Notes under the pieces: model-generated
The model's database searches: none
Told to the model about the DNA's origin: nothing
What the model saw: only the letters and a program-made list of their open reading frames with translations
Program-made: the position numbers and the translations under genes
Assembly (NCBI GenBank): GCA_029559475.1
Contig: JAKQBN010000074.1
Coordinates: forward strand, 1 to 19,030
DNA length: 19,030 nt
Direction of reading: 5' to 3'
From: a bacterium
Lineage (GTDB): Bacteria; UBA4055
Part shown: piece by piece, positions 4,557 through 19,030 of the stretch
Layout: every line of letters starts with the position of its first letter
Position numbering within the stretch: position 1 is the first letter of the stretch

Positions 4557-6080
4557 ATGACCGATTTTAAAATGAAAGCCTGCATGATAGATATTTCGAG
4601 GTTCCGCGTACCTAAGTTTGAAAGAATGAAGAAGATGCTGAAAAAGATATCTGATTCAGGCTATGATACAGTATTTTTTAACATAGAGCACACTTTTAAA
4701 CTACCCGAGCATCCGAGAATAGGGATCGAGGCTGACGGGTACGATATGAATGAGTTTAAGAAACTTTCTTCTTACGCTCAGAAGCTGAACATTTCACTTG
4801 TGCCGCTTATTCAGTCATTCGGGCACATGTTCCATATTTTAAAATGGGATGAATATTCTTATCTCGCTGAATCCGACATGAAATGGTCAGTTTCAGTTTC
4901 TGATCAGACTTATATTCTGATCGACGATCTATACAGAAGAGCAGCAGAATCCTTCAATTCGGAATACATTCATATCGGCGGGGATGAGGTATATGACATG
5001 GCCTCGGGAAAAAGCAAACACCTTCTTGAGTTCATTTCGAAAGACGATCTTTTTCTGACCCACATACTCAACTTAAAGAACCTGGCGGCCAAATACGGTA
5101 AGAAGATCGTTCTGTGGGGCGATATGATAGATAAAAATCCGGAAGTATTAAAAAAGCTTGGTAAAGATATTATCGTATGCTACTGGAACTACGATTTCAA
5201 GGATATGCCTGATTCATACAAAAATATCGATGCGAAGATACTGGTCTGTCCGGGAACGAACACGTGGAAAAGCTTTTTCCCGAGATATGATTATGCGCTC
5301 AGGAATTTTAAACTTATGAAAAAGCGGGCTGATGAGCTTGATGCTTTCGGTTTTATGATCACCGACTGGGGCGATGCGGGTCACGTTCATCCTCTTTCGT
5401 TCACGGAAAATCTGTTCGATATAGCATTCAGGATTTTTATTGGTGAAGATATAAACAAATATGATGCTTCACCCGAAATAAATGAACTGATCACTCTTTT
5501 AGACGAGGTTCATTTCGCCGATTATCTTAACTGCGACTGCGTGAGGAACAAGCCTGAATATATTACCAAACTGCTTTTTCACGACAGCCCGTTCACAGGC
5601 AGAGGATATTCATTACAGACCGAAGAACATCTCGAGCTGCTGCTCTCAAAGATCGAAAAAGTAAAAGCAGCTATGGCGCGTACAAATTTTAAAACAGAAT
5701 TTGGACGGGATATAAAACTTTTCGCACAGCAGACAATTCTGTTCGGGGACAAAATCAAGCTTCACTTGAAGCTGAGAAAAGAGTGTGCTCATGAAGAGGT
5801 CAGAAAAAGCTCCGAGGATTTTATTATCGGCCTTAGAAAATGGTTCGCCGCTTATATGAAGAACTGGCTGTCAACAAGTCAGCCGATGGGGCTGTATTTT
5901 CACATACACTTCATGAAAAAGATCGAGACGGATATTATAAAAGGGCTCAAGCTTTACGCCGACAGTGATTATTCGAACATTCCCAAGAAAAATCTTTATG
6001 ACGATGCGGAATTTCTGAATCTGTTCAGCGTGGGAAGCGCGGATGCGCTTAAAACCCTCTGGGATAAATATTTATTATAG
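4557..6080 (+). CDS. glycoside hydrolase family 20-like protein (beta-N-acetylhexosaminidase-type)
   Basis: A 507-residue protein whose first two thirds look like the (beta/alpha)8 barrel of GH20 hexosaminidases, which remove terminal N-acetylglucosamine or N-acetylgalactosamine by substrate-assisted catalysis. The catalytic Asp-Glu pair is D143-E144 in YIHIGGDEVYD. Supporting barrel motifs are PLIQSFGHM near residue 83, KIVLWGDM near 185 and a GFMITDWGD segment. The C-terminal 170 or so residues are helical and I do not recognise them. No signal peptide and no GH20b N-terminal domain are present, so it should act in the cytoplasm, perhaps on imported or recycled amino-sugar oligomers. The ATG at 4557 follows CAGGAG; a TTG at 4500 is possible but has no ribosome binding site. 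tadA starts nine bases after the stop. Confidence 0.8.
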   Translation: MTDFKMKACMIDISRFRVPKFERMKKMLKKISDSGYDTVFFNIEHTFKLPEHPRIGIEADGYDMNEFKKLSSYAQKLNISLVPLIQSFGHMFHILKWDEYSYLAESDMKWSVSVSDQTYILIDDLYRRAAESFNSEYIHIGGDEVYDMASGKSKHLLEFISKDDLFLTHILNLKNLAAKYGKKIVLWGDMIDKNPEVLKKLGKDIIVCYWNYDFKDMPDSYKNIDAKILVCPGTNTWKSFFPRYDYALRNFKLMKKRADELDAFGFMITDWGDAGHVHPLSFTENLFDIAFRIFIGEDINKYDASPEINELITLLDEVHFADYLNCDCVRNKPEYITKLLFHDSPFTGRGYSLQTEEHLELLLSKIEKVKAAMARTNFKTEFGRDIKLFAQQTILFGDKIKLHLKLRKECAHEEVRKSSEDFIIGLRKWFAAYMKNWLSTSQPMGLYFHIHFMKKIETDIIKGLKLYADSDYSNIPKKNLYDDAEFLNLFSVGSADALKTLWDKYLL

Positions 6081-6089
6081 GATTGAACG

Positions 6090-6578
6090 ATGTTCGATGA
6101 GGATGATAAACGGTTCATGAAAAAAGCGTACAATCTCGCTTTAAGAGCTTATGAAGAAGGTGAAGTTCCGATAGGAGCGGTGATAGTAAGAGAAGGGAAA
6201 GCGATAGGGGAGGGATATAACCAGACCGAGCTTTTAAAGGATGCTACGGCTCACGCTGAAATGATAGCGATAACCGCTGCCGAGAACTCTAAAGAAAACT
6301 GGCGTTTAAATGACTGCACGCTGTATGTAACCGTTGAACCCTGTATGATGTGCACGGGTGCGGTCTCGCTTTCCCGTATAGGCAGGATCGTTTACGGGCT
6401 GGAAGATCCCCGCATGGGGTTTATTTCATCAAAATTCGACGGGCTGAAGGAACTTAATATAAATAAGGCCGTAACGGTCGAAAGGGGGCTGATGCGGGAA
6501 GAGATATATGAGCTGATGCAGAACTTTTTTATGGGTCTCAGGGAAAGAGATAAGAACAAAAGCAGAAATAATTTGTAA
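6090..6578 (+). CDS. tadA: tRNA(adenosine-34) deaminase TadA
   Basis: A 162-residue zinc deaminase that converts adenosine to inosine at the wobble position of tRNA-Arg(ACG), needed for decoding CGN codons. The cytidine-deaminase-type zinc site is complete: H55-A56-E57 (Zn ligand and proton shuttle) and P84-C85-M-M-C88. The TadA-typical E-V-P-I-G-A segment is at residues 25-30, and RIVYGLEDPRMG follows the zinc site. Length is normal for the family. It starts nine bases after the GH20-like stop and has only a weak ribosome binding site, so it is probably translated within the same transcript. It is an essential housekeeping gene in most bacteria. Confidence 0.95.
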   Translation: MFDEDDKRFMKKAYNLALRAYEEGEVPIGAVIVREGKAIGEGYNQTELLKDATAHAEMIAITAAENSKENWRLNDCTLYVTVEPCMMCTGAVSLSRIGRIVYGLEDPRMGFISSKFDGLKELNINKAVTVERGLMREEIYELMQNFFMGLRERDKNKSRNNL

Positions 6579-6628
6579 AATGCTCTGACCGAAGTTATCT
6601 TACAGCGCGAAAATTAAAAGGGAATTAA

Positions 6629-6961
6629 ATGAAAGACATCAAAAATAAATTTCTGGCGAACATAATAATGATCTTCACTTTCGGACTAGTCGTGCCTGAT
6701 GTTATTAAAAGAACCTATCCGTTCGAGCCGGGATCATTAAAAGACAGGAACATGCGCTTCAATAACATACTCTGGGCGCTGATATATTTCTTTTTTGTAG
6801 TGATGATCATCGTTGCCTGCTTCGATTCATTTTTCATAAACAGGGCGACTCTCGTAAAATATTTCACAAGGATCGCGCTTTCCATGCTTGTCTATATTCT
6901 GATATCAGACGGGATCGTATCAGTGATAAAGAACAGCGATAAAGCGAAAAAAATACAATAG
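6629..6961 (+). CDS. small three-helix membrane protein of unknown function
   Basis: A 110-residue protein I do not recognise. Three hydrophobic segments are visible at about residues 9-24, 47-65 and 78-100, joined by a basic loop (IKRTYPFEPGSLKDRNMRFNN) and a short NRATLVKYFTR linker, with a lysine-rich C-terminus. The arginine/lysine distribution suggests loop 1 and the C-terminus are cytoplasmic, but both cannot be on the same side with three full helices, so the first segment may be re-entrant or peripheral. The ATG follows AAAGGGAAT. It lies 50 bases after tadA and 15 bases before mfd, all on one strand, so it is likely cotranscribed. Confidence 0.7.
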   Translation: MKDIKNKFLANIIMIFTFGLVVPDVIKRTYPFEPGSLKDRNMRFNNILWALIYFFFVVMIIVACFDSFFINRATLVKYFTRIALSMLVYILISDGIVSVIKNSDKAKKIQ

Positions 6962-15893: not shown

Positions 15894-17243
15894 ATGAAAA
15901 AAACGTATATTCTAACAATTCTGACAATGTTATGCCTGACAGCTCTAAAAGCAGAAATAAATTTCACTCAACATGATCTTACATCACCTGTGACCATTTT
16001 TTACGGACTCAACGAAAGTCACAGTAAAAGCTGGGCTCAGATTACAAACGACGGATTGATCGGTATTTCCTATTTTAAGCGATCAGCCGGAGAACGTTAC
16101 ACAGGTGATTTAATCTACAAGTCAATTCAGCCTGATGGAACTGAAAAAGATGAAATTGTATCTACTGGCAATAGTTTGGAAGTTTCTGTACTTGTGTTTG
16201 ATTCACAATCCAAACCGCATATTTTTGTAGCCAGTTCTGATGAAGTTGATCAGACAATTGTTCATTTCTTTAAAAGCAGTGATATAGCCTGGAGCTCTGA
16301 AAACATTGTCCATTTTAATAACGAAGGCGGTAAATATATCTATGAAATGTCTGCTGAACGCGGACCGGATAATTTGTTTCATTTATTAGTACTGAAAACC
16401 CGTTCAAATCCGGATTCTGAAGATTATTACTATGCTTATAAAAATGCACATCTCTATCATTTAAATAATGATCAAAACGGTAACTGGCAAAAAGAGTTAA
16501 TCTATAACTACGACACTGTCTGGACTCTGGACGAATATTCCAAAGCTCTCAATCGTCAGGATATGAAAGTCGATAAAAACGGTAAGATCCATGTAGTTTT
16601 CAACAAACAGATCAACTCGTCCAGCAGGCTAGAGTATGCAACAAATAAAAACGGCTGCTGGGAAATTGAAACAGCAGTTAATTTTTCTGCCGGAACCCGC
16701 GACGATGGAGGCTGGTTCCCTTCCTTAGCTTTAGACAATGAAGATCAGCCTTATGTTTCCTGTGTTTATGTCGGAAGATGCTCCTCCGGTTCGGCTACTT
16801 ATGCAAAATTATTGTTTGTATCAAGAGATGAAAACAGCTGGACGCAGGAAATAATCGCAGCCAATGATGACGGGTATTACGGTTCAGACGGCAGAAATTA
16901 TACCGGGGCATTATCTCATCTGGTTTTTGATAAGAATAATCAGCCGCACATTGTTTTCTCGGACATTGCTTCTTCGCATTCAGCTATGAATTACTGGAAT
17001 CTCGGCAATATTCGTTATGCAGTTAAGGAAAATGACAATTGGATGATATCTACGATCTACGAACAGCCTTTACCGAATGGATTTTTCAACGCTGTTGAAA
17101 TGTATGGAATGTGTTTATTGATTTCTGATAATGTTGATAAAATTCGAGTATCGGACAGCAGCTTATTGTTAACAGCAGCACTGATTATTCTTTCACTCTG
17201 GTTCAAAAAAATATTGAGAACAGCAGTATTACAGAAGAGTTAA
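15894..17243 (+). CDS. secreted beta-propeller-like protein, frameshifted near its C-terminus
   Basis: A 449-residue exported protein (signal peptide MKKTYILTILTMLCLTALKA, cleavage before EINF). The body contains at least four copies of a BNR/propeller-like motif, a small-residue loop followed by P-H-I-x-F or similar: FDSQSKPHIFVAS (102-114), VDKNGKIHVVFNK (226-238), LDNEDQPYVSCVY (280-292) and FDKNNQPHIVFSD (345-357). Each is followed by a tryptophan-containing strand such as NSWTQEI or DNWMIST. Up to about V419 the sequence is coherent. The last 30 residues (SDSSLLLTAALIILSLWFKK and after) are unlike the rest. In the overlapping frame the sequence continues naturally into a sorting domain, so this frame has probably lost its true C-terminus. 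The substrate or ligand is unknown. It has its own promoter candidate and reads away from the antiporter. Confidence 0.75.
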   Translation: MKKTYILTILTMLCLTALKAEINFTQHDLTSPVTIFYGLNESHSKSWAQITNDGLIGISYFKRSAGERYTGDLIYKSIQPDGTEKDEIVSTGNSLEVSVLVFDSQSKPHIFVASSDEVDQTIVHFFKSSDIAWSSENIVHFNNEGGKYIYEMSAERGPDNLFHLLVLKTRSNPDSEDYYYAYKNAHLYHLNNDQNGNWQKELIYNYDTVWTLDEYSKALNRQDMKVDKNGKIHVVFNKQINSSSRLEYATNKNGCWEIETAVNFSAGTRDDGGWFPSLALDNEDQPYVSCVYVGRCSSGSATYAKLLFVSRDENSWTQEIIAANDDGYYGSDGRNYTGALSHLVFDKNNQPHIVFSDIASSHSAMNYWNLGNIRYAVKENDNWMISTIYEQPLPNGFFNAVEMYGMCLLISDNVDKIRVSDSSLLLTAALIILSLWFKKILRTAVLQKS

Positions 17244-17509
17244 TAAAACAAGATGAGTTGATGCATAACTACCCAAATCCATTCAATCCGGTAACCGTGA
17301 TTAAATATAATTTAGAAAGTGCAAATAATGTAATTTTGAACATATACAATGCTAAAGGTGATCTGGTAAAAAATTTAGTAAGCAGAAATCAGCCTGCCGG
17401 TAATTACAGTGTTTCGTTTGATGCCTCCGGAATCAACAGCGGTGTTTATTTTTACAAACTGGCTTTAGATGGAAAAAGTGTTGTGCGTAAGATGCTTTTA
17501 ATCAAGTAA
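17141..17509 (+). pseudogene. displaced C-terminal part: linker and type IX-like sorting domain
   Basis: This frame opens just after a TAA at 17138-17140 and runs, without a start of its own, as NSSIGQQLIVNSSTDYSFTL, then a linker, then a complete Por/FlgD-like C-terminal sorting domain. That domain starts at H-N-Y-P-N-P-F-N-P-V-T-V-I-K-Y and ends G-V-Y-F-Y-K-L-A-L-D-G-K-S-V-V-R-K-M-L-L-I-K. The domain normally ends large secreted proteins and directs them through the type IX system. One added base near 17150 would join the upstream protein (ending DNVDKIRV) to IGQQLIVN. A TTG/ATG at 17258-17263 exists but has no ribosome binding site, so separate translation is unlikely. It is most simply the 3' part of the same gene. 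Confidence 0.75.
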
Positions 17510-18687
17510 AATATTGAGTTGTAAAATAAGAAGTTCTCAAACAGCTTTACTTCCACTCTATCGAGTCTTTGGAATATCTGCCCGTTCGCCTGAATGAACT
17601 TTCGCATTTCAATAAAGGCTTTCATGATTTTTATGCTCATCTTCACAGCGATTTCGCTTTTTAAGACTGCAGACAGCATCGCCACTCCCTCCTGAGTAAA
17701 AACATAAGGGATATTACGCCTACCACCTTTCTTTGTAGGCATCATCTGTGACCTCAAAGAAATTTCAGCCTTGTTTGAGGTCACAAATTGTGACCTCAGT
17801 TCTGGAACTTCCGAATATTTCAGCAGAAAGCAAAACTCCGACGGGAGTCTTTCAATATTCCTTTTTACAGACTGATTTAATACTTTCGTCTCAACTCCAT
17901 ACAGCTCAGCCAAATCACTATCCAGCATCACCTGATAGCCTCGGATCGAATAAATCCTGTCGCGAATATCCTTCGACACTTTGACCTCGATCGTAAAATA
18001 TTGCTCCGCAAATTTCTTCAAATCAAGCCTGAATTGGTCTGAGATCGATTTAGTCACGATCCTAACTTGAACGCCCTTATTTATTTTCGTCAGATGAACC
18101 AACACAGTATCGTCAATATAATTATCTACAATAACGATAGACTTCTCCGCTTTTCTGAACAGATCGGAAACAAAATTATAGGCATCGAAAACCTGACCCT
18201 CAAAGAATATTCCCTGTTTGGGAAGCTGCTCTGCGGAAATCTGCAAATCTATTCTATCAACTTTTTGTTTAAAAGAATAAACATCATCTTCAATTTTGTT
18301 AAATCTGTTATTTAATGAATAACCTTTTAATAAATAATCTTTCAATATCCTATTAGCCCATATTCGGAATTGCGTTCCCTGCTTAGATTTTACTCTATAG
18401 CCTATTGAAATTATAACGTCAAGATTATAATACTCGACATTCTTTGTTTGATATTTTCCTTCCATAGTTCCATGCAGAGTGGTGGTCGCAAATTTTGCGA
18501 CAACCACTTTCTTATCCAGCTCACCCTCGGAAAAAACATTATTAATATGCTTATCAATAGTTTTTACATCTCTATTAAACAGAACCGCCAGCTGATTTCT
18601 GTTCAGCCATACCGTTTCTGCCTCAACTCTTACATCAATCCTGCTTGATAATTCATTTGCCTGATACAAAACTATTTCATTGTTCAT
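17452..18687 (-). CDS. chimeric RhuM / partial PLD-like / ORF6N protein
   Basis: A 411-residue minus-strand protein that looks like several genes joined in frame. Residues 1-125 are a RhuM-type domain (VWLNRNQLAVLF, then YQTKNVEYYNLDVIISIGYRV). Residues 157-242 are the first part of the PLD-like domain common at the C-terminus of RhuM and ORF6N proteins (PKQGIFFEGQVFDAY, AEKSIVIVDNYIDDTVL). This stops at V-S-K-D-I-R-D-R, exactly where the catalytic H-x-[KR] motif should start. From about 243 to 381 an ORF6N DNA-binding domain follows (IYSIRGYQVMLDSDLAELYG, QEGVAMLSAVLKS, MKAFIEMRKF). The last 30 residues (LFENFLFYNSIFYLIKSILR and after) derive from noncoding DNA and the antisense of the neighbouring sorting domain. 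The ATG follows GGAG and lies 12 bases after the upstream paralogue's stop. Whether the product is functional is doubtful. Confidence 0.75.
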   Translation of the reverse strand: MNNEIVLYQANELSSRIDVRVEAETVWLNRNQLAVLFNRDVKTIDKHINNVFSEGELDKKVVVAKFATTTLHGTMEGKYQTKNVEYYNLDVIISIGYRVKSKQGTQFRIWANRILKDYLLKGYSLNNRFNKIEDDVYSFKQKVDRIDLQISAEQLPKQGIFFEGQVFDAYNFVSDLFRKAEKSIVIVDNYIDDTVLVHLTKINKGVQVRIVTKSISDQFRLDLKKFAEQYFTIEVKVSKDIRDRIYSIRGYQVMLDSDLAELYGVETKVLNQSVKRNIERLPSEFCFLLKYSEVPELRSQFVTSNKAEISLRSQMMPTKKGGRRNIPYVFTQEGVAMLSAVLKSEIAVKMSIKIMKAFIEMRKFIQANGQIFQRLDRVEVKLFENFLFYNSIFYLIKSILRTTLFPSKASL

Positions 18688-19030
18688 AGCGCCACTCCAT
18701 TACTTTATTTTCTTCAACAGTTTTAATCCTGATTTATCCATTTTCGTAAAACCGAACAGCTTCCTGCCCAAATCTTTCAGCGATGCTCCGAGATGATACA
18801 AAACTTCACCGTCAATAATGATAAATCTGTCGTGAATATCCTTCGACACTTTGACCTCGATGGTAAAATACTGATCCTCAAATTTGCTGATATCAAGCTT
18901 GAACTGATCTGATAATGATTTAGTCACAATCTTGACCTGTACATCCTTTTTAATTTTCGTCAGATGAAGCAGCACCGTATCGTCAACATAATTATCTACG
19001 ATAACGATAGACTTCTCCGCTTTCCTGAAC
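17960..19030 (-). repeat. tandem duplication of the PLD-like segment (870-base period)
   Basis: Bases about 17960-18160 and 18830-19030 are near-copies in the same orientation, aligned at a fixed offset of 870 bases with no gap in that span. They encode the same protein segment in two adjacent genes. Similarity breaks at 17955-17957, where the downstream copy has one extra base and switches to ORF6N sequence. The right-hand limit is outside the window, so the full repeat unit is unknown. Confidence 0.8.
18700..19030 (-). CDS. partial RhuM/ORF6N-type protein with intact PLD-like C-terminus (runs off the window)
   Basis: The C-terminal 109 residues of a gene whose start lies beyond the right edge. 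The first visible residues are FRKAEKSIVIVDNYVDDTVL; an internal GTG at 18975 is not a credible start. The module ends with H-D-R-F-I-I-I-D-G, a variant HxK(x4)D catalytic motif of the phospholipase D superfamily with Arg for Lys. G-A-S-L-K-D-L-G and a basic tail follow. It is paralogous to residues 177-244 of the downstream chimera: 56 of 68 residues are identical by hand count, with a constant 870-base offset and no gaps. The module is often attached to RhuM or ORF6N DNA-binding domains. Which N-terminal domain this copy carries cannot be seen. Confidence 0.75.
   Translation of the reverse strand, partial: FRKAEKSIVIVDNYVDDTVLLHLTKIKKDVQVKIVTKSLSDQFKLDISKFEDQYFTIEVKVSKDIHDRFIIIDGEVLYHLGASLKDLGRKLFGFTKMDKSGLKLLKKIK

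What the first reader, a model, noticed from the sequence alone, without database searches (positions are those of the whole stretch)
17452..18687. In-frame RhuM / half-PLD / ORF6N chimera cut exactly at the catalytic HKD-like motif
The neighbouring paralogue reads V-S-K-D-I-H-D-R-F-I-I-I-D. The chimera reads V-S-K-D-I-R-D-R-I-Y-S-I-R-G, the normal opening of an ORF6N domain. The join lies in a short stretch where both parents share something like ATTCxCGACAG(G)ATTTAT, so microhomology recombination is a natural cause. The result loses the catalytic His and the whole second half of the PLD-like domain but gains a second DNA-binding domain. It is either a decaying fusion or a new two-headed DNA-binding regulator lacking nuclease/phosphodiesterase activity.
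Basis: partly seen in the sequence, partly recalled or inferred. Interest (0 to 1): 0.6.

Follow-up and report, generated by a model that had tools for sequence, protein, structure and literature searches.

The report
Broken fusion gene with coding palindromes
Two neighbouring genes of one DNA-binding/nuclease-like family were fused into a protein that keeps both DNA-binding heads and loses the catalytic half; that is an ordinary accident, but both heads are encoded through a DNA palindrome whose two arms change together across many bacteria and archaea, which is unexpected and testable.

Summary
The reading is right; the drama is not. Window 17452-18687 (-) is one open frame: RhuM head, N-terminal half of a PLD-fold domain, ORF6N head, and a 26-residue tail of unrelated sequence. 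Its two parents are common proteins, RhuM-PLD and ORF6N-PLD; PADLOC files both under candidate PDC-S05. Among the deduplicated frames with these modules in my loci the architectures are 58 ORF6N-PLD, 36 RhuM-PLD and one fusion. The ORF6N half is 95% identical to an intact ORF6N-PLD gene in a congener. The cut removes all 11 family-invariant residues from the His onward and none of the 31 before it. The join rests on about 5-7 bp of microhomology inside a tandem array, so deletion between array neighbours is likelier than misassembly. I read it as a young non-catalytic relic that may still bind DNA.

The main discovery lies in the gene's anatomy. Each head contains a 23-31 bp palindrome inside its coding sequence, over the winged-helix wing. 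Homologous RhuM and ORF6N genes keep it by changing both arms (covariation 0.82 vs 0.26 shuffled, and 0.54 vs 0.18). Synonymous shuffling destroys it. Many Bro-N genes have one too. I found no description of it.

The parts
17452..18687 (-). chimeric CDS, 411 aa
   Evidence: open frame; Pfam RhuM + ORF6N
18247..18687 (-). RhuM head, residues 1-147
   Evidence: PF13310; 83% aa identity to the head of an intact RhuM-PLD protein in a same-family genome, L046
17968..18219 (-). N-terminal part of the PLD-fold domain, residues ~157-240
   Evidence: 65% to the PLD part of an ORF6N-PLD paralogue; intact homologue has PLD fold over model residues 178-310
17950..17970 (-). fusion point GATATTCGCGACAGGATTTAT; HDRF of the parent replaced by RDRI
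17533..17967 (-). ORF6N head plus linker start, residues 241-385
   Evidence: PF10543; 95% aa, 90% nt to intact G002 gene over 145 codons
17455..17532 (-). 26-residue non-homologous tail reading antisense through the end of the T9SS-tail ORF
   Evidence: donor homology ends at window 17533
18478..18508 (.). in-coding palindrome of the RhuM head, AGTGGTTGTCGCAAAATTTGCGACCACCACT on the coding strand (KVVVAKFATTT)
   Evidence: conserved with covariation in 46 distinct windows
17776..17798 (.). in-coding palindrome of the ORF6N head, TGAGGTCACAATTTGTGACCTCA on the coding strand (LRSQFVTS)
   Evidence: conserved with covariation in 38 distinct windows
18700..19030 (-). neighbouring paralogue, PLD part only, cut by the contig end; intact HDRFIIID
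15894..17509 (+). convergent BNR-repeat protein whose T9SS C-terminal tail lies in another frame

Best explanation
The gene arose by small deletions in a tandem array of head-PLD paralogues. One deletion joined the HKD motif of a RhuM-PLD gene to the start of the ORF6N domain of the next gene, at 5-7 bp of microhomology. A second removed the PLD domain of that next gene up to the convergent T9SS gene. The product can still carry two winged-helix DNA-binding heads, but has about 83 of about 133 residues of a PLD fold and no catalytic motif, so it cannot be a PLD-type phosphodiesterase. It is most likely a young non-catalytic relic; if expressed it would bind the parents' DNA sites and could compete with intact family members. 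Shown: anatomy, parents, uniqueness in what was searched, and loss of catalytic residues. Inferred: the ancestral gene order, DNA binding, lack of activity and the competitor role.
For: Intact parents of both kinds are frequent (58 ORF6N-PLD, 36 RhuM-PLD, 1 fusion). Delongbacteria carry tandem, near-abutting copies, e.g. L045 5056-5904 / 5908-6858 in the same frame with only a stop codon between the open frames, and an adjacent ORF6N-PLD/RhuM-PLD pair in L051. The ORF6N half is 95% identical to an intact ORF6N-PLD gene of a congener. The chimera keeps all 31 invariant residues of RhuM-PLD proteins before the cut and loses all 11 from His on. The PLD fold of the parent family matches NucT, Nuc, SauUSI and Zucchini. 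A PLD tree puts the chimera's half-domain and its neighbour among Delongbacterial ORF6N-PLD genes (100/97), although its RhuM head is closest to L046, whose PLD lies elsewhere, so heads and PLD cassettes have been exchanged before. No 3-domain protein in 61 relatives, the phylum's 13 genomes, 79 GTDB loci, 392 genomes of another phylum (junction query), phages or plasmids.
Against: The order RhuM-PLD followed by ORF6N-PLD was not seen in any locus; the adjacent pairs found have the opposite order. No stop or frameshift breaks the fusion, and the chimera branch of the ORF6N part has 7 nonsynonymous to 18 synonymous changes, so it is not freely decaying over the whole branch; part of that branch precedes the fusion. 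Reads could not be inspected.
Confidence: 0.72

Rival explanations
1. The fusion is a selected two-headed DNA-binding regulator or a built-in competitor of intact PLD paralogues (a natural dominant negative).
For: Open frame, intact heads, almost no loss at conserved positions (one F->L among the 20 invariant ORF6N columns), both head palindromes intact, 7 N to 18 S changes.
Against: Found once only; random 26-residue tail; half a PLD fold is unlikely to be stable; the chimera branch has 7 N while the congener branch has 0 N of 11 changes (Fisher P 0.076).
Confidence: 0.15
2. Assembly artefact of repeated paralogues in a metagenome bin.
For: The contig ends 1 kb away inside the same family; the chimera and its neighbour share a 28-nt exact repeat ending at the join.
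Against: The ORF6N side shares only about 5 bp with the PLD parent at the join, far below usual k-mers; the 28-nt repeat could swap PLD copies but could not create the PLD-ORF6N join; no intact parent of the ORF6N half exists elsewhere in the bin (best 61%).
Confidence: 0.08
3. Two proteins are made: the truncated RhuM-PLD fusion and a separate ORF6N protein from an internal GTG (codon 237) with GAGG five bases upstream.
For: Sequence GAGGTCAAAGTGTCGAAG directly before the ORF6N domain.
Against: The same sequence is present in the neighbour's PLD, so the signal is coincidental; no expression data.
Confidence: 0.05

Closest known systems
PADLOC candidate defence family PDC-S05, models PDLC04879 (RhuM-PLD) and PDLC04869 (ORF6N-PLD)
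   Same: Both halves match these models strongly (E 1.7e-90 and 2.6e-86)
   Different: Members have one head plus a whole PLD domain; the fusion has two heads and half a PLD. PDCs are mostly unvalidated (PMC12988326)
NucT / Nuc single-HKD PLD nucleases and SauUSI PLD nuclease domain
   Same: The fold of the intact PLD cassette (Z 11.2-11.7)
   Different: The cassette has HxRx4D, not HxKx4D, and the fusion has no HKD motif
TrmB / TrmBL2
   Same: Winged-helix head followed by a PLD-like domain
   Different: No RhuM or ORF6N head
BstA with its aba element (PMC8585504)
   Same: Phage-type DNA-binding head in a defence protein, and a cognate short DNA element overlapping its own gene
   Different: aba is 63 bp at the 5' end with direct CCCGCC repeats; here the element is a covarying palindrome over the wing codons and no function has been tested
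Rickettsia palindromic elements (from memory, not tested)
   Same: Palindromic DNA inside protein-coding genes
   Different: Those are longer and inserted in unrelated genes; these sit at one homologous place in each head family

Membership tests
PDC-S05 (PADLOC) | head domain plus complete C-terminal PLD-like domain in one chain | tested here: not met
   PDLC04879 matched only to 246/285; nothing after the HKD position
Virulence_RhuM PF13310 | Pfam gathering score | tested here: met
   77.1 vs 33.7 bits, but only profile positions 2-85 of 252
ORF6N PF10543 | Pfam gathering score over the whole domain | tested here: met
   109.1 vs 27.8 bits, profile 2-86 of 86
PLD superfamily | HKD (HxKx4D) catalytic motif | tested here: not met
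   His replaced by Arg and everything after it missing; the parents themselves read HDRFIIID
PLD superfamily | PLD fold in the intact parent | tested here: met
   Foldseek and VIA-align on the ORF6N-PLD model: 4urj, SauUSI, NucT, Nuc, Z 11-13
BstA/aba-type self-immunity | DNA element in own gene suppresses the protein | not testable with these tools
   analogy only

The most novel reading that the evidence does not exclude
RhuM, ORF6N and many Bro-N genes carry, inside the codons of their own winged-helix wing, the palindromic DNA site that the encoded protein dimer recognises. Site and recognition surface are then the same piece of DNA and must change together, giving every variant its own cognate site (for autoregulation or self-immunity) and making specificity portable as one cassette.
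Probability: 0.35. Interest if true: 0.88.

Novelty: new variant of a known kind. Interest (0 to 1): 0.58.

Why it matters
The fusion itself is a clear snapshot of how tandem arrays of candidate phage-defence genes lose catalytic domains and shuffle DNA-binding heads. The coding palindromes matter more. They are a strong, simple, repeated DNA-level constraint inside protein genes of widespread but functionally unsolved families. They suggest where these proteins bind and make that directly testable in culturable Bacteroides.

Tried and rejected
Established architecture: rejected, no second example. Viral collection: no relative confirmed. Structure of the chimera with RhuM-only alignment: the ORF6N half had pLDDT mostly under 50 for lack of alignment, so unusable there. 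A mixed alignment of both parents (A1) misaligned PLD against ORF6N and was not used. Palindrome as an RNA hairpin: disfavoured, because G-U cells are only about 10 of 460 and 6 of 418 and pairing runs almost to the centre. Palindrome as a result of amino-acid constraint: rejected by synonymous shuffles. Promoter copies of each gene's own palindrome as a general rule: not supported; only about 5 of 100 genes have a close upstream match and the test against other genes' palindromes was not significant. The RhuM palindrome occurs once in the window's genome, in the gene itself. Literature searches for the palindromes found nothing relevant, in an open-access library only. A Bro-N covariation count failed because my pattern was too narrow (3 rows).

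Full report
Observation. The minus-strand ORF 17452-18687 is 411 codons. Pfam finds RhuM at residues 62-147 and a complete ORF6N at 244-341. The neighbour upstream on the same strand (18700-19030, cut by the contig end) reads VSKDIHDRFIIID where the chimera reads VSKDIRDRIYSIRG; the two are identical for 28 nt up to GATATTC.

Parents. In the window's own genome (2.28 Mb, 83 contigs) the ORF6N half and the PLD half recur together in single 295-333 aa frames. In relatives the RhuM half recurs with a complete PLD domain in about 290 aa proteins. Over all loci fetched by then, the deduplicated frames comprise 58 ORF6N-PLD, 36 RhuM-PLD, and exactly one RhuM-PLDn-ORF6N, the chimera; the rest are single modules or partial frames. 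A congener, Candidatus Delongbacteria UBA12480 (L045/L065), holds an intact ORF6N-PLD gene whose ORF6N part is 95% identical in protein and 90% in DNA over 145 codons. The RhuM head is 83% identical to an intact RhuM-PLD protein of a same-family genome (L046). PADLOC files both intact kinds under PDC-S05; such PDCs are mostly unvalidated candidates (PMC12988326).

What was lost. Across 35 RhuM-PLD proteins there are 42 conserved columns at the strictest setting. The chimera keeps all 31 before the cut and loses all 11 from the His on. The ORF6N part departs at one of 20 such columns (F->L). A model of the intact ORF6N-PLD parent (mean pLDDT 75.6) matches PLD folds over residues 178-310: SauUSI, NucT, Nuc and Zucchini, and also the non-catalytic TrmB domain. 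The family motif is HDRFIIID...GAS, so the usual HKD Lys is Arg even in intact members; catalysis by the parents is therefore itself inferred. The fusion ends the fold just before this motif.

How it arose. Tandem, nearly abutting copies are common in this phylum. At the join the PLD parent reads GAT ATT CAC GAC AGA TTT and related ORF6N genes read ATC AGA GAC AGG ATT TAT; the chimera reads GAT ATT CGC GAC AGG ATT TAT. Exact shared sequence is only GACAG, extendable with one mismatch. The donor homology stops again at residue 385, and the tail reads antisense into the convergent T9SS-tail ORF. Two small deletions in an array RhuM-PLD, ORF6N-PLD, T9SS gene explain everything; that order is inferred, since the adjacent pairs I found have ORF6N first. 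A PLD tree places the chimera's half-domain and its neighbour among Delongbacterial ORF6N-PLD genes (100/97) while the closest RhuM head (L046) has a PLD from elsewhere, and in L051 adjacent ORF6N- and RhuM-headed genes share a PLD clade (100/98). So head exchange on PLD cassettes has happened repeatedly, and the fusion is a further event of that kind.

State of the gene. On the chimera branch of the ORF6N part there are 7 nonsynonymous and 18 synonymous changes against 0 and 11 on the congener branch (Fisher P 0.076). This argues against long neutral decay but not against a recent loss of function. An assembly error is unlikely because the join has too little shared sequence, although reads were not available and the contig end lies 1 kb away in the same family.

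The palindromes. The ORF6N-coding part contains TGAGGTCACAATTTGTGACCTCA (17776-17798) and the RhuM-coding part AGTGGTTGTCGCAAAATTTGCGACCACCACT (18478-18508). Homologous genes have a palindrome at the same place with different arms, for example TTGAGGTTCCAAAATGGAACCTCA, TTGAAGTCGCAATTTGCGACTTCA and TGGAGGTCGCAATTTGCGACCTCC in ORF6N, and AACTGTCAAGGATTCCTTGACAGTT and AACTATTCGGAAATTCCGAATAGTT in RhuM. In 390-nt head segments, 70 of 86 ORF6N and 40 of 56 RhuM segments reach an inverted-repeat score of 9, against 39 of 1290 and 72 of 840 synonymous-codon shuffles, and 17 of 478 other ORFs.

At a fixed homologous position, without requiring each sequence to be palindromic, Watson-Crick pairing is 0.84 (ORF6N) and 0.88 (RhuM); shuffles give 0.58 and 0.47, slid registers at most 0.29. 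The pair counter gives covariation 0.824 against 0.260 (sd 0.022) shuffled and at most 0.17 slid for RhuM, with 157 doubly changed cells against 54; for ORF6N 0.542 against 0.177 (sd 0.018) and at most 0.12 slid (the A6 set was thinned by hand to 38 windows). Relatedness inflates the shuffle test but not the slid control. Of 29 Bro-N genes, 15 reach the score against 1 of 145 shuffles. Plasmid RhuM-PLD genes of Bacteroides fragilis, B. thetaiotaomicron and Parabacteroides distasonis have it too.

What the palindromes could be. In the RhuM model the encoded residues form the first strand of the hairpin after the helix-turn-helix (strand 63-71); in ORF6N they lie in the corresponding insert. The borders are sharp at 12-13 pairs either side of a single central base, the inner positions vary most, and G-U cells are rare, all of which suit a double-stranded site for a dimer rather than an RNA hairpin. 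Free-standing sites of the same type occur near these genes more often than expected: 18 sites at 16/19 or better where 5.2 are expected, most of them at 17/19 or better; some of these may lie in other coding families. Against the self-site idea, most genes have no copy of their own palindrome upstream and that test was not significant. Alternatives are correction of imperfect palindromes by template switching, or a mobile palindrome. BstA offers a precedent for a defence protein with a cognate DNA element overlapping its own gene (PMC8585504).

Verdict. The fusion is real as sequence, unique in what I searched, and ordinary in origin (interest about 0.25 alone). The coding palindromes raise the score; their function is not shown.

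Noticed in passing
window 17776-17798 and 18478-18508; RhuM, ORF6N and Bro-N genes of many loci: Covarying palindromes inside the coding sequence of the winged-helix wing, kept by double changes in both arms across phyla. Function unknown; a self-encoded binding site is proposed.
   Followed up: yes
L069 3740 and 3778; L115 3823 and 3887; L094 3917; L036 1411; L108 4901; L110 4970; L117 4893; L133 4933: Palindromes of the same type stand outside the head segments, upstream or just downstream of RhuM/ORF6N genes. Some may be remnants of decayed genes.
   Followed up: partly
window 15894-17243 and 17258-17509: BNR-repeat protein and its T9SS sorting tail are in different frames, so the gene is frameshifted or has an assembly indel; no homologue in 12 family genomes.
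   Followed up: partly
PLD tree; L051 4062-4943 and 5272-6111; L046: Heads (RhuM or ORF6N) have been exchanged on PLD cassettes at least three times on the tree, including within this phylum.
   Followed up: partly
L069 3600-3720, L115 3700-3800: The frame just upstream of the RhuM or ORF6N gene ends in a sequence that looks by eye like a type I methyltransferase (HsdM) C-terminus; not tested.
   Followed up: no
window 17977-17990: GTG codon with GAGG five bases upstream directly before the ORF6N part could start a separate ORF6N protein.
   Followed up: no
window 19030: The contig ends inside the PLD cassette of another paralogue, so the array probably continues beyond the assembly.
   Followed up: partly
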